Numbered from the stretch's first letter, positions 1,172 to 20,085 are shown. The stretch: 20,085 nt of DNA from a virus (IMGVR_UViG_3300029267_000170:1-20085), one strand, 5' to 3'. The notes: generated by a model not told the origin, from the sequence alone. Program-made: numbers and translations.

Positions 1172-1582
1172 CTACGTGATCGCTATGCTGATGCCCGGCT
1201 CTCCTGCCGCCGCAGCGGCCTCGATCGCGTCCAGCTCGTCGCCGGTCAGGTACAGGAGAACAGCGTCCGTCCCGAGGTTCGTCCGCGTGATCGCCGCGAC
1301 AGGCTCCGAGTCGTCCGTAGACGTGGAGGCGACGAACAGCGTCCCGGCCGGCGCGCCGTCGCCGCGCAGCCTGGAGAACAAAGGCCAGTTGAGCTGCAGC
1401 TTCGATCCCTTCCACAGCTCGGAGCCGTCCGCGGCGTACAGGTCGGCATACCACGCCTGCACGCGGTCGCTCCACCATATCCGGAGCCTGTACGAGACGC
1501 CGTCCAGGCTGATCGTCTCCGTCCAGTCCGTCAACCCCTCGTTGTCCGCCAGATTGTTGAACACCGGGATGACCTGAGACAC
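1172..1582 (-). CDS. Baseplate plug protein, Pam3 gp18-like (DUF6983-type)
   Basis: A 136-residue protein. It appears to start at a GTG (1582-1580): no ATG precedes the conserved MSQVIPVFNNLADNE start, and GGAGG lies 9 bases upstream. The core reads FNNLADNEGLTDWTETISLDG, then YRLRIWWSDRVQAWYADLYAADG, then ELWKGSKL. The 'YRLR-x(2)-W-x(6)-W-x(2)-DLY-x-ADG' pattern is typical of a small protein that closes the tail tube end in the cyanophage Pam3 baseplate and is common in phages with DUF3383 sheaths. The C-terminal half (GTLFVASTSTDD, NLGTDAVLLYLTGDEL) is also typical. Its location between a Dit-like protein and the hub supports a baseplate role. A 93-base leader containing a hairpin precedes it, whereas most neighbouring genes overlap. 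The alternative description would be an uncharacterised baseplate protein. Confidence 0.75.
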   Translation of the reverse strand: MSQVIPVFNNLADNEGLTDWTETISLDGVSYRLRIWWSDRVQAWYADLYAADGSELWKGSKLQLNWPLFSRLRGDGAPAGTLFVASTSTDDSEPVAAITRTNLGTDAVLLYLTGDELDAIEAAAAAGEPGISIAIT

Positions 1583-6413: not shown

Positions 6414-6968
6414 TCAGGGATAGTCGACCTTGACCGGCGCCTCGCCGACCGTTCCGTCGGCGTGGATCTCCTGGATTGAGCCGACATCCTCAGTAAGCCT
6501 CAAACTGAACAGGAATGCAAGATCCAACTGCATGACCCTGTACGGCTGTTCATCCTCGAGGACAGAGACGTCGTTCGGGCCGCCGTCCACGCCGATGATC
6601 GACAGGCCGGCAGCCCTGTTCGTCTCGACAGACGACGGGAGCTTGAAGTCCATGCTCGCCGTCTGCGCCATGTTGCGCGCGTCGAACCCGAAGCACTTGA
6701 CCGAGACGGACCCGCGCTTGATCTGGTCGACGCGGTACTCGTAGTCCGTCGGCGCGCCGCCCGCCTCGTCTACCAGCGCCCGCTCGCCCTGTCCGACGTC
6801 GACAACGGAGACCGGCTGCAGCGTGACGTAAGGCCACGCCGGGCGCGGGGCGCTCTGGTTCGCGTAGATCACCGGGATGCCGGAGCCTACTTTGTCCATC
6901 GCCGCCTGGAGCCACGCCTGAATCGCGGCCTCCCACGGCTCCGGCTCGTACTGCGTGCGCGCCGTCAT
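6414..6968 (-). CDS. Tail terminator / neck protein (phage neck terminator gp12-like, LIC_12616-type)
   Basis: The start is the ATG at 6968-6966 that overlaps the preceding stop (ATGA), giving 184 residues; a longer in-frame start at 7043 would bury 79 bases in the previous gene and adds unconserved sequence. The N-terminus (WEAAIQAWLQAAMDKV, then VIYANQSAPRPAWPYVTLQ) is the signature of small neck/tail terminator proteins: an amphipathic helix, a 'P-V-x(2)-A-N-Q-x-x-P-R-P' loop and a strand. Further features are YRVDQIKRGSVSVKCFGFDAR and LDLAFLFSLRLTEDVGSIQ, which end typical members. In the family it caps the tube and sheath when the tail has reached full length. It lies just before the sheath gene, as in other DUF3383 phages. 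Confidence 0.78.
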   Translation of the reverse strand: MTARTQYEPEPWEAAIQAWLQAAMDKVGSGIPVIYANQSAPRPAWPYVTLQPVSVVDVGQGERALVDEAGGAPTDYEYRVDQIKRGSVSVKCFGFDARNMAQTASMDFKLPSSVETNRAAGLSIIGVDGGPNDVSVLEDEQPYRVMQLDLAFLFSLRLTEDVGSIQEIHADGTVGEAPVKVDYP

Positions 6969-7378
6969 GACTCCTCCCCTCCCTCCGGAGGCCTGACCTC
7001 CCGGAGCGCGTAGCGCGTGTGCCGCACCGGTCGCGGGCTCCACGTCGGGAGATTCTCCGGCATCTCCTCCACCACCTCGTATTGATGCCCGTCATCGGCG
7101 ATCAGCCTGTCGGCCTTGCGCCCTGCCGACCGCGCGCCGGACGTGTCGCCCTCGACGAGCGTCCTCAGCTCCTGGTCGCCGCGCACCAGGTAGAACGCCC
7201 ACTCTACGCGGTTCTCCTTCTGCCCCTCGGTCCTCAGCTCCATCTGGCGCGTCGTGAGCCGCTGCAGGATGCCGGTCACCGAGATCTCTTCCAGCTCTGC
7301 CGACCAGACGCCGGCCGTGAAGGCGCCTCCTGTCTCCCGCACGACGACGAACGACCTGGACAGCACGGCGGCAATCAT
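6965..7378 (-). CDS. Putative head closure / head-tail joining protein
   Basis: A 137-residue protein between the gp10-like and neck-terminator genes, with ATGA overlaps on both sides. The stretch GGAFTAGVWSAELEEISVTGILQRLTTRQMELRTEGQKENRVEWAFYL and later DRLIADDGHQYEVVEEMPENLP suggests a small beta-barrel: a strand-rich protein with 'D-G-x-x-Y-E-V' near the end, as in many stopper (SPP1 gp16-like) and head-closure proteins. Length and position fit such a connector. I do not recognise a specific family with certainty, so the function is mainly from context. Confidence 0.6.
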   Translation of the reverse strand: MIAAVLSRSFVVVRETGGAFTAGVWSAELEEISVTGILQRLTTRQMELRTEGQKENRVEWAFYLVRGDQELRTLVEGDTSGARSAGRKADRLIADDGHQYEVVEEMPENLPTWSPRPVRHTRYALREVRPPEGGEES

Positions 7379-7884
7379 CTCGTCCTCCCGATCACCACCC
7401 GCTCGCCCTTGCGCACCTCGACCTGGATGGAGTTGCGCAGAGCCGTTGTGTCGACGAGCCCGCTCACCGGCTCGCCCTTGGAGTTCGTCCAGTTCACGAA
7501 CTCGACGGACTCCCGGATGTCCTTCTGCGCCCGGACGCCCAGCGACTGGAGCGCCTTCTCCGGAGTCAAGCGCCCGTCCTGCACCATGGCCAGCAGCGAC
7601 GCGCGCAGCCGGTCGTAGTCCGCCCTGTTCTTGTCCAGACCCTTGCGCATCCAGGCCTTTTCCGGCACCTTGCCGCCGTCCGACCCGAACTCGTGCAGTC
7701 CGCCGTACAGGGCGATGGGGTAGTCGATTTTGGAAGGAGGCACGTCCTTGCCGAACATGCCCATGACCGAGCCCTCGAATATCCCGACCAGAGCAGCCAG
7801 CTCGCCGAGCTCCAGCGTAGCCTTCATGGCCCGCTCGAAGCCGTTGTCCCTCTCGACCAGCTGGACCTTGACCCCCTGGCTCAT
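7375..7884 (-). CDS. HK97 gp10-like / virion morphogenesis tail-completion protein
   Basis: The start is set at the ATG 7884-7882, which overlaps the stop of the previous gene (ATGA), giving 169 residues starting MSQGVKVQLVERDNG. The open frame continues upstream to 8148, but that extra sequence is Arg-rich read-out of the previous gene. The conserved core is IALYGGLHEFGSDGGKVPEKAWMRKGLDK (residues about 59-88): the 'Y-A/G-x-x-H-E-F-G ... P-x-R/K-x-W/F-M/L-R-x-x-L' pattern of HK97 gp10 and Mu-like virion morphogenesis proteins. The C-terminus (LVDTTALRNSIQVEVRKGERVVIG) is also usual: 'L-x-D-T-G/T-x-L-x-x-S-I'. In the family it helps complete the tail-side junction of head and tail. Confidence 0.78.
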   Translation of the reverse strand: MSQGVKVQLVERDNGFERAMKATLELGELAALVGIFEGSVMGMFGKDVPPSKIDYPIALYGGLHEFGSDGGKVPEKAWMRKGLDKNRADYDRLRASLLAMVQDGRLTPEKALQSLGVRAQKDIRESVEFVNWTNSKGEPVSGLVDTTALRNSIQVEVRKGERVVIGRTR

Positions 7885-8297
7885 AGTCCCGGACTCTCTC
7901 TGTATGGGTAGAGCATGCGGCCCTTGTCCGTAGCGAGCTGCGTCTCGCTCCAGCTCACGGACACGGATCCGATCGCTCCGGCCGACGCGCCGGGCAGCCG
8001 CTTGACGTACCAGTTGCATGCCCACATCAGAACGAACGACTGCACGGACGACGGAAGCGCCACGGAGAACGGAGCGAGAGCCGACTCGTAGTCGGCGAAG
8101 TCGGACTGGCAGTACTGGTCGGCCTCGCAGCAGGCCTCGATCCAGCATGCGGCCGCCATCTCGGCCGACATGTCCGACTCGGCGACGCCGAGCCAGTCCG
8201 CCATATGAGACACGAATCCAGGCACCTCGGACGTAGAACCCATGCGGTCCTGGATCGTCGTGTAGACCGTGCCCTCGTATGTCCGCGTCTCCGTCAT
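7881..8297 (-). CDS. Head-tail connector, HK97 gp6-like adaptor
   Basis: A 138-residue, mostly helical protein. MADWLGVAESDMSAEMAAACWIEACCEADQYCQSDF (from about residue 32) followed by LPSSVQSFVLMWACNWYVKRLPGA resembles HK97 gp6/SPP1 gp15 adaptors: helix pairs with small acidic residues, then 'P-x-x-V-x-x-F-x-L-x-W-x-x-x-W-Y' as the second helix. Such adaptors form a dodecamer ring under the portal. It is the first structural gene after the glycosyltransferase cassette, and its ATG overlaps the stop of the upstream glycosyltransferase (8294-8297), so it is coupled to that gene. The protein is unusually rich in Cys (three in residues 46-57). The assignment is from pattern and position. Confidence 0.66.
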   Translation of the reverse strand: MTETRTYEGTVYTTIQDRMGSTSEVPGFVSHMADWLGVAESDMSAEMAAACWIEACCEADQYCQSDFADYESALAPFSVALPSSVQSFVLMWACNWYVKRLPGASAGAIGSVSVSWSETQLATDKGRMLYPYRESPGL

Positions 8298-9268
8298 GCG
8301 ATCGCCTCCAGCCGTTCGACCAGCTCGTCGAGCTGCGCCTCGTGCAGAGCCGCGACCCGATCTGCGTTCATGATAGCACGGCCGGCCAGATCGTCAAAGC
8401 GTTCCTGGTCGTCGAACAGCCGCGCGATCTCCTTGACCCACCGCGCCGCGTCGTGGGGCAGGAACACCGCCCCGTCCCCGAGCGACTCCCGCAGGCTCGG
8501 CAGGTCCGACGCGATCACGGGGATGCCGTTCCACTGCGCTTCTACGGCCGCCATGCCCCAGCTCTCATGCAGGCTCGGCATGAGCAGCACGCGAAGCCGG
8601 GCGAACAGCTCATGGATCGGACCGGGCGTCCATTCGTCGAGGTTGCGCTCGCGCATCGGGACGCGGATGCCGTAGCCGCCGAGCTGAGCGATGAACATCT
8701 CGCTCGGCATGGCCCTCACGACGTCCATGAACAGGTCGGCGCCCTTGTCGGCGATCGGATTCGCGATCCCGACCGCGTCCTGACAGGTGTGGACTCCGGG
8801 GATGCCCTGCACCTCGATCCGCTCGACGTCCAGCGGCGGCACGAGCACGCAGGCCGGCAGATCGCCGATGTGATGCCTCGACGCCGCAAGCGTGACCGGC
8901 GAGTTGGCTATCCACAGCGCCGCCGACGGACGCACCGGCGCGGAGATCGTCGCCGGGCTCCAGGCGTTGTGCATCACGACGCAGGCCGGGCACGGAGCCT
9001 GCTGCAGCGTCTGCGCCGCCCACTCGTACTGAGTCAGCACGACCTGGGGCTTGACCTCACGGCAGACAGCGGCGAAGTCGCGCATGGACCGGCGGCGCCA
9101 GATCTTGACGCCGCGGTCGCCGTCGATCCGCCTGGCCCCGTTCGGCGTGGATGTCAGGATGTGGACCTCGTGTCCGCGCGACGCCAGCTCGACCGCGACG
9201 CCCTCCGTGTAGAACTCGCTTCCGGCCATCCGCGGCCGGTAGTGGCGGGTGGTCCACAGGAGGCGCAT
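8294..9268 (-). CDS. GT4-like glycosyltransferase (GT-B fold), soluble
   Basis: A 324-residue protein. The N-terminal Rossmann half has MRLLWTTRHYRPRMAGSEFY and VELASRGHEVHILTS. The C-terminal half has IANPIADKGADLF (residues 168-180, including the Lys of the phosphate-binding 'KG'), and PSLHESWGMAAVEAQWNGIPVIAS (231-254) with the E-x7-E motif at E235 and E243 that binds the sugar nucleotide in retaining GT4 enzymes. No membrane segment or signal peptide is present, so it should act in the cytoplasm on a nucleotide-sugar. AGGAGG lies 9 bases before the ATG, inside the end of the methyltransferase gene (4-base gap); its stop overlaps the gp6-like adaptor start. Substrate and acceptor are unknown. 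It sits in a head module, where such genes are not standard. Confidence 0.88.
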   Translation of the reverse strand: MRLLWTTRHYRPRMAGSEFYTEGVAVELASRGHEVHILTSTPNGARRIDGDRGVKIWRRRSMRDFAAVCREVKPQVVLTQYEWAAQTLQQAPCPACVVMHNAWSPATISAPVRPSAALWIANSPVTLAASRHHIGDLPACVLVPPLDVERIEVQGIPGVHTCQDAVGIANPIADKGADLFMDVVRAMPSEMFIAQLGGYGIRVPMRERNLDEWTPGPIHELFARLRVLLMPSLHESWGMAAVEAQWNGIPVIASDLPSLRESLGDGAVFLPHDAARWVKEIARLFDDQERFDDLAGRAIMNADRVAALHEAQLDELVERLEAIA

Positions 9269-9272
9269 GGGC

Positions 9273-9965
9273 TCAGGCCTCCTGGCGCACGACGAACCAG
9301 TGCTCGTCGACGGTCCAGCTCGTCATCCGCTCCGCGTTGAACCCGGCATCCTTCAGCATGGCGGATACCTCGTCCGGCTCGTACCCGCGCATGCACGGCA
9401 CGGGCCGCTCATCCTCCGGGCCGTCCCACGGCCTCACGGCCGGCGAGTCCGCGCGCAGCAGCTGGAACACGAAGCGGCCCGTGCTGCTCAGGAGCCGGCG
9501 TACCTGATGGAAGATCCGCTGCACTTCCGCCTTGCGCAAGTGCTGAAACACGATACACTCATAGACTACGTCGAATTTCGGCACGCCGGGCATGATCGCC
9601 CCGATGTCCTGCAGCCTGCCGTGCATGAGCAGAATGCTTCCCATACCCCGCGTCACGCCGGCTCCGAGCTCGATCATCTCCTTGCTCGGATCGATTCCGT
9701 AAAGACAGTGTTCCTGGATCCGCCCCGCGCCGATCGCCGCCAGATTGAACCCGGGCCCGCAGCCGATCTCGAGCACGATGTCTCCCGGCTTGATCTGACT
9801 CGGGATCCGGCACCGGGCCAGCTTGAGCGCCGAGTGCCCGATGCATTCGACGATCACATCAGGCCCCATGACTCTGCCCCGCGCTCCCACCTCTGTGTGC
9901 ACGAGACTCAAACCGTTGTGCAGCAGCTCACGGTCCCAGATCTCTCCGTAGTCGAATTCGCTCAT
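9273..9965 (-). CDS. Class I SAM-dependent methyltransferase
   Basis: A 230-residue protein. Motif I is clear: GDIVLEIGCGPGFNLAAIGA (residues 61-80), followed by an acidic residue at the end of strand 2 (LYGIDPSKEMIELGA, D92) and a motif IV-like FDVVYECIVFQHLRK (131-145) before a GRFVFQLLRADSP strand. These place it in the Methyltransf_11/25-like group, mostly small-molecule, sugar or lipid methylation. It lacks the catalytic NPPY/DPPY motif of N6-adenine or N4-cytosine DNA methyltransferases and the Pro-Cys motif of C5 enzymes. It is flanked on both sides by glycosyltransferases with a 4-base overlap upstream and a 4-base gap downstream, so O-methylation of a sugar (capping) is the simplest role. 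That is inference. Confidence 0.85.
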   Translation of the reverse strand: MSEFDYGEIWDRELLHNGLSLVHTEVGARGRVMGPDVIVECIGHSALKLARCRIPSQIKPGDIVLEIGCGPGFNLAAIGAGRIQEHCLYGIDPSKEMIELGAGVTRGMGSILLMHGRLQDIGAIMPGVPKFDVVYECIVFQHLRKAEVQRIFHQVRRLLSSTGRFVFQLLRADSPAVRPWDGPEDERPVPCMRGYEPDEVSAMLKDAGFNAERMTSWTVDEHWFVVRQEA

Positions 9966-12133
9966 GATCGATCCCCGTTCATCTTCCGCGTCACCTGTCC
10001 GGGATGCACCCGGTAGATCGCTCCGTGGTAGTCGTCGTCCCGATGCAGCCTGCCGCCGGCCTTGTACAGCCGGCGGAACGTCTCCTGATCATCGTCGCCT
10101 GGCTTGAGCCGCGCAGTCCCGTAGCTGCCGGCGGCGAGCAGCGACGCACGCCGCATGAGCGCCGTGCAGTGCGGAATCGTACTGTGCGCGGCGATCGACT
10201 CCACGGGCAGACGCGGCCATTCGCCCGGCTCAAGCCGGAATCCTTGATCGTCGTCCGGCCATGCAACCAGCATGCGGCATGACCACAGGTCCAGGCCGTG
10301 CTCGTCCGCCGCCTCGACGGAGCGCGCCAGATAGTCGGGCATCAGCACGTCGTCATAGTCCAGCGGCTTGACGTACTCGCTCGTCGACTGCTCGATGCAC
10401 TGGCGGAACGCCCAGCCCATGTGCTCCTGATTCGCAGGCTCGCCGCTGCAGACCCAGTCGATCCCGCCGTAGCGGTCGGCGACCTCCTGAGCCTGATCCG
10501 GCAGGCCGTCGAAGCAGAGCACGACCTTGAAGTCCCGATACGTCTGGCGCGTGATTGAGAACATCGCCGCGTCGAGCCAGGACAGCCGATCACAGCCGTG
10601 GTGGTACCGGAGCATGACCGTCACGCGAGGATCGTCCCGGCTCGGGTCCGGCAGCAGCCCCTCGACGTCGAGCAGCCGGCGGCCGAACTTCTCCGGCCAG
10701 CCGCCGTCGACCATGAACGGCTCGACAGCCGACACGCACGGCTCGGATGCGCACGCCGCCGCGCGCCTGATCGCCGCAGCCGCATCACGGCCCATCCGCC
10801 GCCAGTCGACGTCCGCCCTGCCCGTGCTCTTGCCGTCCGAGTCGTCGAAGTCGTACAGCGCGCCGGTCTTCCCTTCCTCGATCAGGCCGATCGCGTTGGC
10901 TCCCCGAGTGACGGCCGCCGGCAGGCCGCAGGCGAGCGCCTCGACGAGCGACAGGCAGAATCCTTCGGTCGGGCTCGTCGCGACGAACACGTCGTGATCG
11001 GAGAACATGCGCGCGTAGTCCGTCGTGATGTCGAAGCCTTTGATGTGCAGACGGTCATGCACTCCGAGCCTCGAGCACTCCCCGAGCAGACGGGCCGTCG
11101 CGCCGGTCTGCCAGGTCATGACGGACTCGTGGTATGAGTCGTCCACGCCGCTGTAGAGCGTGATCTCGATCTCGGGGTCCGCGGCCAGGATCGACGGGAT
11201 GCAGCCGCCGCCCTTGTCCGGCGAGATGCGGCCGACGTAGACGGCCCTGATCCGGCCGCCGTCCGTGATCGGAGCGCGGCCGCTGATCCGAGACGGACGC
11301 ATCATAGGCGGCGACACGACGACGGGCGGTTCGTCCGACTGGCCGGCCATCCATCGATCCATGTCCGGATTGCTGAGGATGCCCTCGCTGGCAGGCATGC
11401 ATCTGCCCCACCGGCAGGCCGGCGGGTAGACGCGCCCGTGGTCGCCCGCGTGCTGATTCGCGATGATCGCGTCGTGCCGGACGGACGGGTCCGTGATCGC
11501 AGCCCGCTCGTCCTCGGGCAGCAGCCGCCCATAGATGCACGTGACGTGCGTTGACGCCCTGTCGTACAGCCGGACGATCGCCGGCGGCTCATCTAGCTCC
11601 CGCTCGATCGCGTCGACCAGGTTCCATCTCCCCTGCGGCCAGCGCTGCACCAGGATCTGCGCCCGCTCCCTGAGCCACGGAGGCAGCGCCCTGACATAGC
11701 GCCAGACCGCCTGCTGCGTCCCGCCGATGCCCATATCGTAGATGACCCACGTCCACAGCGGGGGGCGCATGTCTCGGACTGTCGGCTCCCTGATCAGCGC
11801 CGCACGCTCCATGTCGGCCCGCAGCGTGTGCGCGGCAAGCGCATCCTCTCCATACTCGATCCCGGCCATGACCGCATGGCCCTGAGCCGCCGCTGCCAGA
11901 CATCCGGATGCAAGCACGAGGTCCGGCTGTTCCTCGTCGATCCACGCCGCGACGTTGCGCACGTCCCGCCTGGACGCGCCCATGCGGATCCGCACGCCGC
12001 GCACGTCGCCGAAGCGGCGTCGCGGGGCGAGCGGATCCCTCCACGACGTGATCAGCGTGACGGCATGGCCGGACGCGGCTAGGGCCTCTGCCCTGGCCAG
12101 GTCAAGGTGCTCGGAGATCAGGACGATGCGCAT
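9962..12133 (-). CDS. Multidomain glycosyltransferase: extra GT-B half + GT4 + GT2
   Basis: A 723-residue protein with three parts. Residues about 1-115 are one N-terminal Rossmann half of a GT-B enzyme (MRIVLISEHLDLARAEALAA, SGHAVTLITS, PDLVLAS) with no matching C-terminal half. Residues about 125-490 are a complete GT4 enzyme: IYDMGIGGTQQAVWRYVRAL, VYVGRISPDKGGG (298-310), and TSPTEGFCLSLVEALACGLP (386-405) with E-x7-E at E390 and E398. Residues about 503-723 are a GT2 (GT-A) domain: VTVMLRYHHGC, SITRQTYRDFKVVLCFDG, the metal-binding LDYDD (591-595), and PGDDDQETFRRLYKAG with the acidic base region. No membrane segments. It probably adds two successive sugars. Ribosome binding site before the ATG is weak (7 bases after the preceding stop), suggesting lower yield than structural genes. 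Confidence 0.88.
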   Translation of the reverse strand: MRIVLISEHLDLARAEALAASGHAVTLITSWRDPLAPRRRFGDVRGVRIRMGASRRDVRNVAAWIDEEQPDLVLASGCLAAAAQGHAVMAGIEYGEDALAAHTLRADMERAALIREPTVRDMRPPLWTWVIYDMGIGGTQQAVWRYVRALPPWLRERAQILVQRWPQGRWNLVDAIERELDEPPAIVRLYDRASTHVTCIYGRLLPEDERAAITDPSVRHDAIIANQHAGDHGRVYPPACRWGRCMPASEGILSNPDMDRWMAGQSDEPPVVVSPPMMRPSRISGRAPITDGGRIRAVYVGRISPDKGGGCIPSILAADPEIEITLYSGVDDSYHESVMTWQTGATARLLGECSRLGVHDRLHIKGFDITTDYARMFSDHDVFVATSPTEGFCLSLVEALACGLPAAVTRGANAIGLIEEGKTGALYDFDDSDGKSTGRADVDWRRMGRDAAAAIRRAAACASEPCVSAVEPFMVDGGWPEKFGRRLLDVEGLLPDPSRDDPRVTVMLRYHHGCDRLSWLDAAMFSITRQTYRDFKVVLCFDGLPDQAQEVADRYGGIDWVCSGEPANQEHMGWAFRQCIEQSTSEYVKPLDYDDVLMPDYLARSVEAADEHGLDLWSCRMLVAWPDDDQGFRLEPGEWPRLPVESIAAHSTIPHCTALMRRASLLAAGSYGTARLKPGDDDQETFRRLYKAGGRLHRDDDYHGAIYRVHPGQVTRKMNGDRS

Positions 12134-12140
12134 GGACGGA

Positions 12141-12452
12141 TCAGGCGTCCGGGCGGTAGGCCGGGTTGTTCACCTGAGTGATCGCGCCGCGCTCCGACTG
12201 GCGGCGCTTGATCTCTGCCGGACTGTACACCCTGTTGCGGCTCGGACGGCACCGCTGCGTCGGCTCGCCCGGATCGTTCTTCGCGTCGCCGGCGTTGACG
12301 TATTCCGCCAGGCCGTTGCGCACGAGCATGTGCCCGACGGCGAAGTCGGCCGCGATTTCCGCGCCCTCGTCGTAGCGCTTCGAACCGCAGCTGATCGGCC
12401 GCAGCGCCTTGATCTTCACCTTGCCGCGCCGCTTGTTTGAGTTGATCTGCAT
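12141..12452 (-). CDS. Small head-module protein (DUF7210-like), function unknown
   Basis: A 103-residue protein. The N-terminal half reads KIKALRPISCGSKRYDEGAEI and then VGHMLVRNGLAEYV, the pattern 'V-K-A-L-R-P-I-x(3)-G-K-R-Y-x-x-G-x-x-x-x-x(7)-L-x-x-x-G-x-A-E' seen in short phage proteins placed next to capsid genes, a small SH3-like or HeH-like fold. The C-terminal half is polar and probably disordered (GDAKNDPGEPTQRCRPSRNR). It is the first gene after the capsid terminator-like hairpin, which makes it the first gene of the distal part of the operon, and the large glycosyltransferase starts 7 bases after its stop. A role in decoration or connector assembly is possible but not shown. Confidence 0.6.
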   Translation of the reverse strand: MQINSNKRRGKVKIKALRPISCGSKRYDEGAEIAADFAVGHMLVRNGLAEYVNAGDAKNDPGEPTQRCRPSRNRVYSPAEIKRRQSERGAITQVNNPAYRPDA

Positions 12453-12593: not shown

Positions 12594-14306
12594 TCAGGAG
12601 CTGGAGCCGCCCGGCGCCGAGTCGAAGGTGATCTTCACGAACGCCTCGGGCAGCTCGGTGCTGAAGCAGACGCGCTCCTCCCCGAGCAGATCCACCATGT
12701 TGCGGGTGAAGTGATCCTCGTGCTGGGTGGCGATGGACACCATGGCCTCCTCTCTGTCCCAGAGCGTGGCCCCGCGCTTGAAGTCGCCGATCAGCGCCTC
12801 TCCTTGCGCGATCGCCGTGTTTTCGACTACCGGCACGCCCCACAGCGTCGGGACCTCGCCGTCCTCGAAGGCGGATCCGACGAGGTAGTGCCCGTCCGAG
12901 CCCTTCAGCTTGCGGATGCTGGTCAGGTCTGTCGGGTTGATCAGGATCGCGTTGGGCAGGTACCCGCCGAGCGCGGCCAGCGTCTTCCCCTCCAGGATCG
13001 CATCGGCCATCGTGTCTCCAGCGTCGCCGGAGCTCCACAGATATGACAGCACGGACGGGTTGATCATCAACCCGAGCAGGTCGGTACCGGTCCCGGAGCC
13101 GTAAAGAATCTGCTGCGTCTCGGAGCGCATCAGGCCGTACATCAGCCTGTTGTCGATCCGGTCGCGAAGCACGGGGTAGTCCTGCAGATACCGCTTCGGC
13201 AGCGGGATGGTCGTGGCCAGCGTCCCGACCGAGCAGGTCCGCTGAACGTATGTCAGCTTCGCCGACGGCTTGAGGTTCGTGTCCGCCGTGAATGTGAACG
13301 TATCGGAATGCACCTCGGCTCCGATCGCGTAGGTGTGCGTGCCGGTGATGCCCGCGGTCAGGGTCACAACGCCGGCGTCTCCGTCGTCGCCCACCGCGAC
13401 CGAGTCCACCTCGGCGGTCTGAGAGTTCGAGCCTTCCTCAATCGTGATCTCCTGGCCCGGGTAGAACCCGTTGGCGTTGCTCACGGCCAGGGTCAGGTCC
13501 CCAGGAGCGGACGCGGCGGTCAGCTCCGTCCTCAGCTCGTGGTAGTTCGTCTCCTCGATCCACTCGATGAGGTCGCTCTCCACGGTGATGGTGTTGAGCA
13601 GGTCCCGCAGACTGACCATGAGGTCCGGAGCGCTCACGAGGTCGCCCCATCGGTAGCTGTACTGAGCCGAGAACGCCGCGGCGCTCGCCGTGTCGATCCC
13701 GCTGTACTCGGCCTTGCGGCCCATGCGTCTCAGCCGCGCGTGCCACGACTTCAGGCCTCCCGGCACCGCTACCTGCAGGCCATTGTACTCGGCGGCGCCG
13801 GCTTTGCGCTCGACAAGCGCCTTGTATTCCTTGCTGTTGGTGAACGCTTCGCCTGGACTCTGCAGCTTGTCGGCCGCTGCTCCGGTCGGGAGTCCGGTGC
13901 CGAAGCTCGCCTTGGCGTTGAGCAGCTGCTGATACTGCTTGACCGCGTCGCGGGTCGCCTCGTCGAGCTTCTTGTTCAGCTCGGACATGGCCTTGGCGCT
14001 CTCCTCGGCGCCCGCCTGATCCGCGGCCTGCATCTGCTCCTGCAGCCCCACGATCTTGGCTTCGAGCTCGTCGCAGCGGGCGAGGCTCGCGTCCAGCTTG
14101 CCCCGCATGTCGTTCAGAATCGCAAGCGCATCCTCCTCCCCATCCGCTGGCTCCGTGCCTTCCGGCTCGCCCTCTCCTGCCGTCGGCTCGACCGATCCGA
14201 TCATGAACGGGATCGCCGCCAGCAGCCCGGCCGGACCGAACGCCGCCGCGCAGACCGCAACGGCCATCGCGCCGATCAGCAGCATGACTCTCTTTCTCTT
14301 GCTCAT
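12594..14306 (-). CDS. Major capsid protein, HK97 gp5-like, with hydrophobic N-terminus and E-loop insert
   Basis: A 570-residue protein; the usual HK97 gp5 is about 385. The C-terminal region aligns by eye with HK97 gp5: RIDNRLMYGL, YGSGTGTDLLGL, ILINPTDLTSIRKLKGSDG, LWGVPVV, ATLWDREEAMVSI, NMVDLLGEERVCF. Residues about 57-170 are a helical, charged delta-like scaffold segment, normally removed by the prohead protease. Two oddities: residues 1-40 begin KRKR and then a long hydrophobic run (VMLLIGAMAVAVCAAAFGP and LLAAIPFMIG) resembling a signal anchor, and residues about 257-335 insert a Thr/Val-rich beta segment just where the E-loop should be. The HK97 crosslink lysine seems replaced by Gln in my alignment (YVQRT). 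AAGGAG 5 bases before the ATG supports this start. Confidence 0.93.
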   Translation of the reverse strand: MSKRKRVMLLIGAMAVAVCAAAFGPAGLLAAIPFMIGSVEPTAGEGEPEGTEPADGEEDALAILNDMRGKLDASLARCDELEAKIVGLQEQMQAADQAGAEESAKAMSELNKKLDEATRDAVKQYQQLLNAKASFGTGLPTGAAADKLQSPGEAFTNSKEYKALVERKAGAAEYNGLQVAVPGGLKSWHARLRRMGRKAEYSGIDTASAAAFSAQYSYRWGDLVSAPDLMVSLRDLLNTITVESDLIEWIEETNYHELRTELTAASAPGDLTLAVSNANGFYPGQEITIEEGSNSQTAEVDSVAVGDDGDAGVVTLTAGITGTHTYAIGAEVHSDTFTFTADTNLKPSAKLTYVQRTCSVGTLATTIPLPKRYLQDYPVLRDRIDNRLMYGLMRSETQQILYGSGTGTDLLGLMINPSVLSYLWSSGDAGDTMADAILEGKTLAALGGYLPNAILINPTDLTSIRKLKGSDGHYLVGSAFEDGEVPTLWGVPVVENTAIAQGEALIGDFKRGATLWDREEAMVSIATQHEDHFTRNMVDLLGEERVCFSTELPEAFVKITFDSAPGGSSS

Positions 14307-17740: not shown

Positions 17741-19162
17741 TCATGCTCCCGGTCTGTCCGACCATCTGGATATCCGGATCACCCGCGCCGCTCCCTCCCT
17801 GACCCTCGCTAGAGCATAGCTCAGGCAGTCGACCCGGTCATCCTTTTTCGCGTGCGGGAACCGGCTGACCTCCATCTTCCAACTCCCGATCCACGGCGCC
17901 AGGGACGCGGACGGAATGTGCACGTTGCCGGCCTCGACCATCGGAGACACGCTGCTCGCCCGCTGCAGCTTGGACCGCCCTCCAGGACTCACCATGATCA
18001 GGCCCGGGATCTCGTCGGCGTGCGACTGCTGCACAGCCGGACCAAGCGCCTTGTCCTCGCACAGCACGCTCTCCGTCTGCGGGAACCGCTCGATCATCTC
18101 GACCATGGCGGACACGACCTCCGGCAGCTTGGCCCGCTTGCGCCACTCTGCCAGGAGCCACGCCGACTTGCCGCGGACGCCCCACACCTGGCCGACCGCG
18201 AAGCTGGACGCCTCGGACTCGCCGCCGAACGTCAAGTCCCAGCTCTGGATCACTGTATCGAAGCTCGACGGGTCCGGCCAGCGGTCGAAGGTTTGGAACC
18301 ATGCTGCCTGGAACACCGACGCGCCGGACGGCGTCGGGTCCTGCTGATACATCGTCTCGAACGCTGCGGAACCCACGCCGTCCTCCCCGTCCCGCAGCGC
18401 CTCCAGCTCGGCAAGCGGCTTGAGCTGCGGACAGAGGGGCTCGCCCTCGGAGCGGCCCAGCGGATCGCCCTCATGCGCGATCGCGGGCAGCACGATGTGA
18501 CGCCATTTGCCGTCCTGGTCGTGGTCCCTGAGCCAGCCCGTCAGGTCGTACTCGTTCCAGCGCGTCTGAACGAGGATGATGGATGCGCCCCTCTCGAGCC
18601 TCGTCATGATCACCCGGTTCCACCACCGGCGCAGCTCACGGACCTTCGTGTCCGAGCGGGCGTCCTGGTCGTTCTTGATCGGGTCGTCCACGATGACCAG
18701 CGACGCGCCCTTGCCCGTCACGGCGCCGCCTACGCCGGTCGCGACAAGCGATCCGCCGCCCGGAGTTACGGTCCACTGATCCATGCGGTCGCGGTCGTGG
18801 CGCCCGACACGGAGGCGGATGCCCAGCTCGTCCGCGTGCTCGTCCAGGTCTCGCTTGATCTCGACGGACCACCCCTCTGCCAGGTCCTTGATGTATGATG
18901 CAAGTATGACCTTGCGGTCTGGATACCAATGGAGGAACCACAAGGGGAGCCGGCGTGATAGCAGCTCGCTCTTGCCGTGTCTCGGCGGCATGTTCAGGAT
19001 GATCCGCGCGCCTCCCTGGACCACGGCGTCCTGCACCTGGCGCGCGATCCATCGGAGGTGGCGGTACGGCTTCCACGAGCAGCCGCTGATGCGGTGAGCG
19101 AACAGGGCCAGGCTCAGCCGCCAGGCCTCATCCGCCGCTTGCGTCGTCCGCGCCGCCGTCAT
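17741..19162 (-). CDS. terL: Terminase large subunit
   Basis: 473 residues from the ATG at 19162-19160, which has AGAGG 6 bases upstream; an earlier ATG at 19192 would add 10 residues and deepen the overlap with the small subunit to 65 bases. ATPase domain: ILNMPPRHGKSELLSRRLP with Walker A (residues 58-66), SLVIVDDP as Walker B (154-161), and LVQTRWNEYDLTGWL with the coupling motif (198-202). Nuclease domain, RNase H-like: D309 in IQSWDLTFGG, D370 in VLCEDKALGPAV, and D441/D442 in KKDDRVDCLSYALA. These residues are all in place, so the enzyme should be active. The motor cuts and packages DNA at the portal. The packaging mode (cos or headful) is not determined here. Confidence 0.95.
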   Translation of the reverse strand: MTAARTTQAADEAWRLSLALFAHRISGCSWKPYRHLRWIARQVQDAVVQGGARIILNMPPRHGKSELLSRRLPLWFLHWYPDRKVILASYIKDLAEGWSVEIKRDLDEHADELGIRLRVGRHDRDRMDQWTVTPGGGSLVATGVGGAVTGKGASLVIVDDPIKNDQDARSDTKVRELRRWWNRVIMTRLERGASIILVQTRWNEYDLTGWLRDHDQDGKWRHIVLPAIAHEGDPLGRSEGEPLCPQLKPLAELEALRDGEDGVGSAAFETMYQQDPTPSGASVFQAAWFQTFDRWPDPSSFDTVIQSWDLTFGGESEASSFAVGQVWGVRGKSAWLLAEWRKRAKLPEVVSAMVEMIERFPQTESVLCEDKALGPAVQQSHADEIPGLIMVSPGGRSKLQRASSVSPMVEAGNVHIPSASLAPWIGSWKMEVSRFPHAKKDDRVDCLSYALARVREGAARVIRISRWSDRPGA

Positions 19163-19646
19163 CGATCGCCTCTGCCAACTTGTCCAGCGCATCGGCCGCC
19201 CGGTCGTCTCCCAGCGCCGATGCGAGCTGCGCGCGCCAGTCTATGCGCAGCGGGCCGCCGTCAGGGCCGGAGATCTCGCGCCGCGCAGGCATGTCCAGAC
19301 CGAGCAGCGCCGCGCGGCGATTCATGACCCGGAGGAGCATCTCCCAAGCCTTGTAGTCGAGCTTGTCGGCCTGCAGGTTCGACAGCATGCCCTTCCAGAT
19401 GAAGTCGAGCTTGGCCGACTCCATCGCGCGCAGTTCGTCGGTCGGCTCCTGCAGCGTCTTGCGGATCGCAGCCTGCAGCGCCTTCTGCACGCTGGACGTC
19501 GACTTGTAGCCCAGCTTCTCGGCGATCTGCCGGTAGGTGAGCCCCATAATGCGAAGCTCGACCGCCTTGCGCTGACGGTCGAGCTTCTCCATCGCTGCAG
19601 GGGTCATTTTGTGATTAGGAGGTCCGGACCCCTTACGCCTAGGCAA
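19128..19646 (-). CDS. terS: Terminase small subunit
   Basis: A 172-residue protein. I prefer a TTG start (19646-19644) because AGGAG lies 6 bases upstream; the first ATG is 13 codons later without a good site. The N-terminus is basic (PRRKGSGPPNHK). Residues about 25-60 form a helix-turn-helix: RKAVELRIMGLTYRQIAEKLG followed by TSSVQKALQAAIRKT, the DNA-binding part of small terminases. Residues about 70-110 (AMESAKLDFIWKGMLSNLQ, DYKAWEMLLRVMNRRAALLGLD) are the oligomerisation helices, ending in a 'R-R-A-x-L-L-G-L-D' motif common in these proteins. It lies upstream of terL and overlaps it by 35 bases. It selects the packaging start site. Confidence 0.84.
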   Translation of the reverse strand: MPRRKGSGPPNHKMTPAAMEKLDRQRKAVELRIMGLTYRQIAEKLGYKSTSSVQKALQAAIRKTLQEPTDELRAMESAKLDFIWKGMLSNLQADKLDYKAWEMLLRVMNRRAALLGLDMPARREISGPDGGPLRIDWRAQLASALGDDRAADALDKLAEAIDDGGADDASGG

Positions 19647-19658
19647 ATTACGCTCCTC

Positions 19659-20085
19659 TCACACGGCGAACCTGTCCGCATCGAGGTGATCGGGCGTCAC
19701 GAACGGAGGACGCCCTCCCTGCTCGTACAGGTCCTTCTTGATGTAGTAGTCGACTCCGAGCCGTTCCGACAGCTCGACCGCTCGGCTCAGGAAGTCGGCC
19801 CAGTCGACGCGCCGCCCGTCGCTCCACCCGTTGACCTTGCCGATCTTGAAGTGATCGACGTCCGGCGCGCTCAGCTCCATGAGCGCCAACGTCTGGTCCG
19901 GATCGATGACCGGCTCGAAGCTGACGAAGGTCCTGACTCCCGTGTCGTGGAACGCGGCGAGCATGGCGAGCCTCTCCTGCGAAGGAGCCGCGCCGGGCTC
20001 GATGCGGAGCGAGTCGTCCGTGTCGAGAAATGTCAGGGTCGCGCCGACCGCAACGCGGTCCATCGTCTCGACGACGTCGAGATCC
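19659..20085 (-). CDS. Radical SAM family protein, C-terminal part (N-terminus off right edge)
   Basis: The frame is open to the right edge; the first visible codons read DLDVVETMDRVAVGATLTFLD, so the ATG at 20063 is internal. The pattern 'D-L-x-x-x-x-x-x-x-V-A-V-G-x-T-x-T/S', then PGAAPSQERLAMLAAFHDTG, then TFVSFEPVIDPDQTLALM and VDHFKIGKVNGWSDGRRVDW, then YYIKKDLYEQGG, is the second half of the TIM-barrel of radical SAM proteins of the spore photoproduct lyase/Rv2578c-like group found in phages. The CxxxCxxC iron-sulfur motif would lie outside the window, so activity cannot be judged. It ends 12 bases before the small terminase start and appears to be in the same operon. Its substrate is unknown. 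Confidence 0.78.
   Translation of the reverse strand, partial: DLDVVETMDRVAVGATLTFLDTDDSLRIEPGAAPSQERLAMLAAFHDTGVRTFVSFEPVIDPDQTLALMELSAPDVDHFKIGKVNGWSDGRRVDWADFLSRAVELSERLGVDYYIKKDLYEQGGRPPFVTPDHLDADRFAV

What the first reader, a model, noticed from the sequence alone, without database searches (positions are those of the whole stretch)
8294..12133. Glycosyltransferase-methyltransferase-glycosyltransferase cassette inside the head module
Seen: three genes with clear GT4, class I methyltransferase and GT4+GT2 signatures sit between the capsid-adjacent small gene and the gp6-like adaptor, a place where only head genes usually occur. They overlap each other and the adaptor by 4 bases or are separated by 4 bases, so they are translated with virion genes. 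None has membrane segments, unlike the membrane-bound glucosyltransferases of phage seroconversion clusters. Established: glycosylated capsid or tail proteins are known in some phages, including mycobacteriophages. Inference: this is a late-expressed system that builds a sugar chain of at least two or three residues, perhaps O-methylated, on virion proteins. The specific set and its coupling to the adaptor may be undescribed.
Basis: partly seen in the sequence, partly recalled or inferred. Interest (0 to 1): 0.85.

Follow-up and report, generated by a model that had tools for sequence, protein, structure and literature searches.

The report
Capsid-linked virion glycosylation gene cassette
A virus of bacteria carries three sugar-modifying enzyme genes right behind its shell-protein gene, and wide comparison suggests that this kind of cassette attaches sugars to the last serine of the phage's shell (and, in many relatives, tail) protein, a trait shown in a few mycobacterial phages but apparently common in uncultured phages and prophages.

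Summary
The trio is real: a GT4 (8294-9268), a class I methyltransferase (9273-9965) and a GT4-GT2 fusion (9962-12133) sit co-directionally, nearly gap-free, between capsid and neck genes of a contractile-tailed phage fragment. The window enzymes show no detectable BLASTP similarity to the ones compared. What is new is the context. Relatives of this GT4 (phrog_26352, 'unknown function') occur in dozens of IMG/VR contigs; in 38 of 38 with a recognised HK97 capsid, the GT4 lies downstream on the same strand. Five have a methyltransferase in between. In three capsid families, glycosyltransferase-bearing phages have capsids ending in Ser/Thr (80/80 in one family); relatives without one mostly do not. 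Tail-tube proteins behave likewise (48/51 versus 11/32; phylogeny-aware pairs 5:0, borderline). The window capsid ends APGGSSS; its sheath and tube do not end in Ser/Thr. Best explanation: cytoplasmic O-glycosylation, with methylation, of the capsid C-terminal Ser tail. Sugar, acceptor and benefit are inferred. New variant of a known kind.

The parts
12594..14306 (-). HK97-fold major capsid protein, 570 aa, ending ...FDSAPGGSSS; proposed glycan acceptor (C-terminal Ser tail)
   Evidence: PF05065 1.4e-34; C-terminus read
12141..12452 (-). Small 103-aa protein of unknown function between capsid and cassette
   Evidence: phrog_2616 5e-6, unknown function
9962..12133 (-). 723-aa fusion: N-terminal partial GT4-like segment (about 1-115), GT4 domain (about 125-490, EX7E at 390), GT2 domain (about 500-720, DYD at 592)
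   Evidence: PF00534 and PF00535, motifs; single-sequence structure model failed, pLDDT 36; domain limits are estimates from the sequence
9273..9965 (-). Class I SAM methyltransferase, 230 aa; proposed glycan O-methyltransferase
   Evidence: PF13649 1.9e-11, SAM motif I EIGCGPG
8294..9268 (-). GT4 glycosyltransferase, 324 aa, GT-B fold, member of phrog_26352, the capsid-linked family
   Evidence: Pfam, phrog_26352 7.9e-36, AlphaFold model pLDDT 88 matching MshA and PimA, relatives next to capsids
7881..8297 (-). Next head gene (connector/adaptor by position), start codon overlaps GT4 stop by 4 nt
   Evidence: overlap; no family match; PF05135 in the matching place of L021

Best explanation
The cassette is a late-expressed, cytoplasmic virion-glycosylation system. 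One of the glycosyltransferases, most likely the phrog_26352 GT4, transfers a sugar from a nucleotide-sugar to the hydroxyl of the Ser-rich C-terminal tail of the major capsid protein (APGGSSS); the GT4-GT2 fusion extends the chain and the methyltransferase caps or modifies it. Shown: the genes, the GT4 fold, catalytic motifs and near-gapless co-directional order; capsid linkage of the GT4 family; presence/absence of such cassettes between capsid and connector in related phages; association of glycosyltransferases with Ser/Thr-terminal capsids and tail tubes. Inferred: late expression, acceptor residue, sugar identity, order of steps, O-methylation of the glycan, and the benefit (shielding particles in the environment or changing adsorption).
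For: Linkage: 38 of 38 IMG/VR contigs with both a relative of this GT4 and a PF05065 capsid have the GT4 93-4448 nt downstream of the capsid match on the same strand; in the A6 capsid family it starts 6-54 nt after the capsid ORF in 80 of 80. Methyltransferase between capsid and GT4 in L057, L063, L076, L078, L087 by family search, and in L036; L036 also has a CTP_transf_3 cytidylyltransferase and L076 a GT11-like enzyme in the gap. Presence/absence: capsid to connector is about 3.6 kb in L063 (methyltransferase + GT4) and 2.3 kb in L094, but 1.0, 0.6 and 0.6 kb in L091, L092, L097 (computed from the hits). Acceptor signature: A6 capsid C-termini 65 Ser + 15 Thr of 80; A4 nearly all Ser, and L241, without GT4 within 4 kb, ends KTA; A3 with GT 17/22 unique tails end in Ser, without GT 0/35. 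Tail tubes ending in Ser/Thr: 48/51 with GT, 11/32 without; Fisher 6e-9; independent pairs about 5.3 same, 0 opposite. Cluster O phages Firecracker and Dylan end LVGS (capsid) and KGDS (tail); TurkishDelight STS and VAS. Published: cluster O and Che8 glycosylate capsid and tail tube (PMC11600133, PMC12363180), at the C-termini (PMC12619734). Hosts of relatives include Streptomyces and Nonomuraea.
Against: No mass data for this virus. The capsid association is strongly clade-structured: only about two independent concordant changes, not significant after correcting for phylogeny; the tail-tube test is borderline (median p 0.03 or 0.06 by direction of test, range 0.03-0.375). Exceptions: GT-bearing capsids of L057/L094, L161, L164, L076, L087, L013 do not end in Ser/Thr; L124 ends SSS without a detected GT in 805 nt. 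The window lineage is only about 31% identical in capsid to the surveyed family and is a myovirus. Its fusion enzyme and methyltransferase have no close relatives, so their roles rest on family-level similarity alone.
Confidence: 0.7

Rival explanations
1. The trio modifies the phage DNA (glucosylation of hypermodified bases) to escape restriction.
For: GT-B enzymes glucosylate DNA in other phages, and one distant viral fold match is annotated DNA alpha-glucosyltransferase (E 1.7e-8, 8% identity).
Against: Conserved linkage to capsid genes across unrelated capsid families; best solved matches are small-molecule and lipid GT4s, MshA and PimA. The fragment holds no replication genes, so base-hypermodification genes could not be looked for.
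Confidence: 0.06
2. The trio modifies the host envelope or a host glycan (seroconversion or superinfection exclusion).
For: Many phage glycosyltransferases do this; the GT4 and GT2 domains resemble polysaccharide enzymes.
Against: No clear membrane segments and no flippase or GtrA/B-type partner next to it; it sits within the head gene run with 4-nt overlaps; the capsid and tail-tube C-terminal association would be unexplained.
Confidence: 0.1
3. A virion glycosylation system, but the acceptor is another virion protein (sheath, fibre, neck) or internal residues of the capsid, and the Ser tail is incidental.
For: Several GT-bearing capsids lack a terminal Ser/Thr; the 137-aa head protein (6965-7378) also ends in Ser; the GS-tailed A3 capsids largely form one clade.
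Against: Ser/Thr exchange while the terminal hydroxyl is kept in 80/80 A6 capsids, parallel tail-tube pattern, and C-terminal sites reported for mycobacteriophages.
Confidence: 0.2
4. A mobile cargo or decayed insertion at a permissive spot between capsid and connector without a role in the virion.
For: The cassette is present or absent among related phages and its content varies.
Against: Open frames, intact catalytic motifs and GC3 matching neighbours; near-universal presence in two capsid families.
Confidence: 0.06

Closest known systems
Cluster O mycobacteriophages (Corndog gp35-38, Firecracker gp33-36)
   Same: An O-methyltransferase and three glycosyltransferases in a tight run inside the head module (between portal and protease), reported to modify capsid and tail tube; capsid and tail subunits of Firecracker and Dylan end in Ser.
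   Different: Enzyme families differ: TylF-type methyltransferase, GT25-like and small GT2-like proteins; no significant BLASTP match for the pairs tried; different place, siphovirus of Mycobacterium; the window is a myovirus with its cassette after the capsid.
Streptomyces phage TurkishDelight gp20
   Same: Tandem GT4-GT4 protein of the same phrog_26352 family between capsid and major tail genes; window GT4 matches it at 31% identity, 1e-25; capsid and tail end in Ser.
   Different: No methyltransferase or GT2 found in its cassette; no glycosylation data found by me.
Capsid-linked GT4 of Streptomyces and Nonomuraea genomes and IMG/VR contigs (phrog_26352 kin)
   Same: Homologous GT4 (27-38% identity), directly downstream of the capsid, Ser/Thr-terminal capsid.
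   Different: Mostly GT4 alone or in two copies; the window adds a methyltransferase and a GT4-GT2 fusion and is separated from capsid by a small gene.
GT4 plus GT8-like fusions after GS-tailed capsids (L131, L159, L148)
   Same: Two-domain glycosyltransferase right behind capsid.
   Different: Only weak sequence similarity to the window fusion (E about 0.015-0.3); the second domain is GT8-like, not GT2.

Membership tests
phrog_26352 / capsid-linked GT4 family | Sequence homology over the whole GT4 protein | tested here: met
   7.9e-36 over residues 7-305; alignment A5 with 27-38% identity
phrog_26352 / capsid-linked GT4 family | Same-strand position downstream of an HK97-type capsid gene | tested here: met
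   About 3.3 kb downstream of capsid in the window; 38/38 relatives
phrog_26352 / capsid-linked GT4 family | Ser/Thr-terminal capsid protein | tested here: met
   Window capsid ends GGSSS
Phage-encoded virion glycosylation (cluster O kind) | Glycosyltransferase genes encoded in the structural region | tested here: met
   compare
Phage-encoded virion glycosylation (cluster O kind) | Methyltransferase in the same run | tested here: met
Phage-encoded virion glycosylation (cluster O kind) | Homologous enzymes | tested here: not met
   No significant BLASTP similarity in the pairs tried; different Pfam and PHROG families
Phage-encoded virion glycosylation (cluster O kind) | Ser-terminal major tail protein | tested here: not met
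   Sheath ends TAPTA, tube ends TPLG
Phage-encoded virion glycosylation (cluster O kind) | Glycans on virion proteins by mass spectrometry | not testable with these tools
   Metagenomic virus fragment
Membrane glucosyltransferase (Gtr) seroconversion cluster | Membrane-spanning glycosyltransferase with flippase | tested here: not met
   Only one marginal hydropathy window, inside the GT4 domain; no partner gene
DNA-hypermodifying glucosyltransferase system | Base-hydroxymethylating or hypermodification genes in the genome | not testable with these tools
   Contig holds only structural genes

The most novel reading that the evidence does not exclude
Virion glycosylation is a widespread, recognisable system of tailed phages: a glycosyltransferase gene linked to its acceptor gene, the capsid, and a C-terminal Ser/Thr on capsid and often tail-tube proteins as the acceptor signal. 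It is nearly invisible in cultured phage collections but common in Streptomyces-type prophages and environmental phages, with swappable add-on enzymes (methyltransferase, GT2, GT8, GT11, cytidylyltransferase), of which the window is one version.
Probability: 0.55. Interest if true: 0.78.

Novelty: new variant of a known kind. Interest (0 to 1): 0.64.

Why it matters
As far as I could find, phage virion glycosylation has been demonstrated in only a few mycobacteriophages. If capsid-linked glycosyltransferases together with Ser/Thr-terminal capsids mark it generally, glycosylated phage particles are common in soil phages and prophages, can be predicted from sequence, and can be tested at once on ordinary laboratory phages and by co-expression. 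It would also give phrog_26352, listed as of unknown function, a role, and raise the question of what sugar-coated particles gain in nature, away from immune systems.

Tried and rejected
Single-sequence AlphaFold of the 723-aa fusion: pLDDT 36, discarded. Host identification of the window virus: TerL and portal scans gave only the same virus and the portal scan of genomes none; host unknown. Close relatives of the fusion and methyltransferase: none in 50,697 phage records or in the loci held. At first I rejected the Ser-tail idea because GS-tailed capsids seemed to occur without the GT4; those capsids turned out to be followed by another, GT4-GT8-like fusion. The naive Fisher value for capsids in family A3 (2e-11) is not used as proof because the trait is clustered on the tree. 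The A4 and A6 families lack enough GT-free members for an internal contrast. A literature search for capsid-downstream glycosyltransferases found nothing specific; the key paper (Freeman 2023) is not held and was used only through papers that cite it. L040 was left out of the tail-tube test because its reading frame was uncertain.

Full report
What is there. The window is a 20,085-base linear virus record with no flanking genome. All plausible genes run on the minus strand in the order terminase small and large subunit, portal, MuF, S78 protease, HK97 capsid, a 103-aa protein, GT4-GT2 fusion, methyltransferase, GT4, a connector-position gene, neck, head, tail terminator, DUF3383 sheath, KPP10 ORF10-like tube, tape measure, Pam3-type baseplate plug. 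The same virus, with identical proteins, is in a second contig (L002/L003, re-fetched whole as L007) that runs about 4.3 kb further to a baseplate J protein and a tail-fibre-like ORF, and in a 5.6-kb contig (L005) that carries the terminase and portal.

The trio. The GT4 belongs to phrog_26352, listed as unknown function. An AlphaFold model from a 16-sequence alignment (pLDDT 88) matches retaining GT-B enzymes such as MshA and PimA. The fusion could not be modelled.

Relatives. A scan of IMG/VR with window GT4 plus the two halves of TurkishDelight gp20 gave 79 further loci. Of the 50 records searched for a capsid, 38 had PF05065; in all 38 the GT4 lay downstream of it on the same strand, most often as the very next gene. 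In five of these a methyltransferase lay between capsid and GT4, and the capsids of L057, L063, L076, L078 and L087 are homologous to the window's. Some gaps hold further sugar genes: a cytidylyltransferase, an MptE-like protein and a methyltransferase in L036; a GT11-like enzyme in L076. Among named genomes the strongest GT4 relatives are in Streptomyces and Nonomuraea contigs, with capsids just upstream wherever one was recognised (12 loci); Rhizobiales hits score far lower and had no capsid hit. In 50,697 cultured-phage records only TurkishDelight has this family at the threshold used.

Presence and absence. Capsid relatives fetched without regard to glycosyltransferases mostly lack one. 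In L063 about 3.6 kb separate capsid and connector; in its sister L091 (72% identical capsid) about 1 kb. So the cassette is an optional block at this spot.

The acceptor idea. Published work places mycobacteriophage glycans at the C-termini of capsid and tail-tube subunits (PMC12619734). Firecracker and Dylan capsids and tails, and those of TurkishDelight, end in Ser. In family A6, 80 of 80 capsids end in Ser or Thr and 80 of 80 are followed by GT4 within 54 nt. In A4 nearly all end in Ser, or Ser-Ala, and carry GT4. In A3, capsids followed by a glycosyltransferase end in Ser in 17 of 22 unique cases, the others in 0 of 35; here the partner is mostly a GT4-GT8-like fusion. Tail-tube proteins end in Ser/Thr in 48 of 51 glycosyltransferase-bearing and 11 of 32 other phages. 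Several of the 11 exceptions end in one clade-specific CAVTVS/T sequence. With phylogeny taken into account the tail-tube contrast is about five independent concordant changes to none (median p 0.03 or 0.06 by direction of test), and the capsid contrast in A3 two to none, not significant. The pattern is therefore suggestive and consistent across families, not proven.

How it probably works in the window. The capsid ends SAPGGSSS, while sheath (TAPTA) and tube (TPLG) do not end in Ser/Thr. I infer that a GT4 primes the Ser tail, the fusion extends it, and the methyltransferase modifies the glycan. In a contractile tail the tube is covered by the sheath, which would fit an unmodified tube. Only the gene-level facts are shown; acceptor, sugar, order and benefit are inferred.

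Comparison with the known. Corndog and kin carry an O-methyltransferase (gp35), two glycosyltransferases and a putative N-acetylglucosaminyltransferase between portal and protease. The authors noted few capsid peptides and proposed capsid modification (PMC4351075); later work cited in PMC11600133 and PMC12363180 reports capsid and tail-tube glycosylation. The window works like this in layout and probable effect, but its enzymes are of other families and no homology was detected in the pairs tested. Hence: new variant of a known kind, with evidence that the kind is much wider than the cultured examples suggest.

Noticed in passing
L131 6285-8054, L159 1514-3235, L148 6297-7955 and others of L090-L169: A GT4 plus GT8-like fusion protein of about 570 aa sits directly behind GS-tailed capsids; the one queried (L131) has no match in cultured phages.
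   Followed up: partly
L036 2740-4413: Between capsid and GT4: CTP_transf_3 cytidylyltransferase, MptE-like protein and methyltransferase, suggesting activation of a CMP-linked sugar for the virion.
   Followed up: partly
L076 4055-8909: Several genes between capsid and connector, including a GT11-like (fucosyltransferase family) enzyme, a methyltransferase-like protein and GT4.
   Followed up: partly
window 12594-14306, residues about 300-380: The window capsid carries a roughly 70-residue insertion absent from its relatives (alignment A2).
   Followed up: no
window 1360-1437: ARAGORN calls a tRNA-Cys on the strand opposite to a baseplate plug gene; no Rfam match at gathering threshold, so probably a false call.
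   Followed up: partly
window 19128-19646: Small terminase candidate whose helix-turn-helix scores as Sigma70_r4_2.
   Followed up: no
window 19659-20063: A 134-aa ORF at the contig end, probably a truncated gene, without a Pfam match.
   Followed up: no
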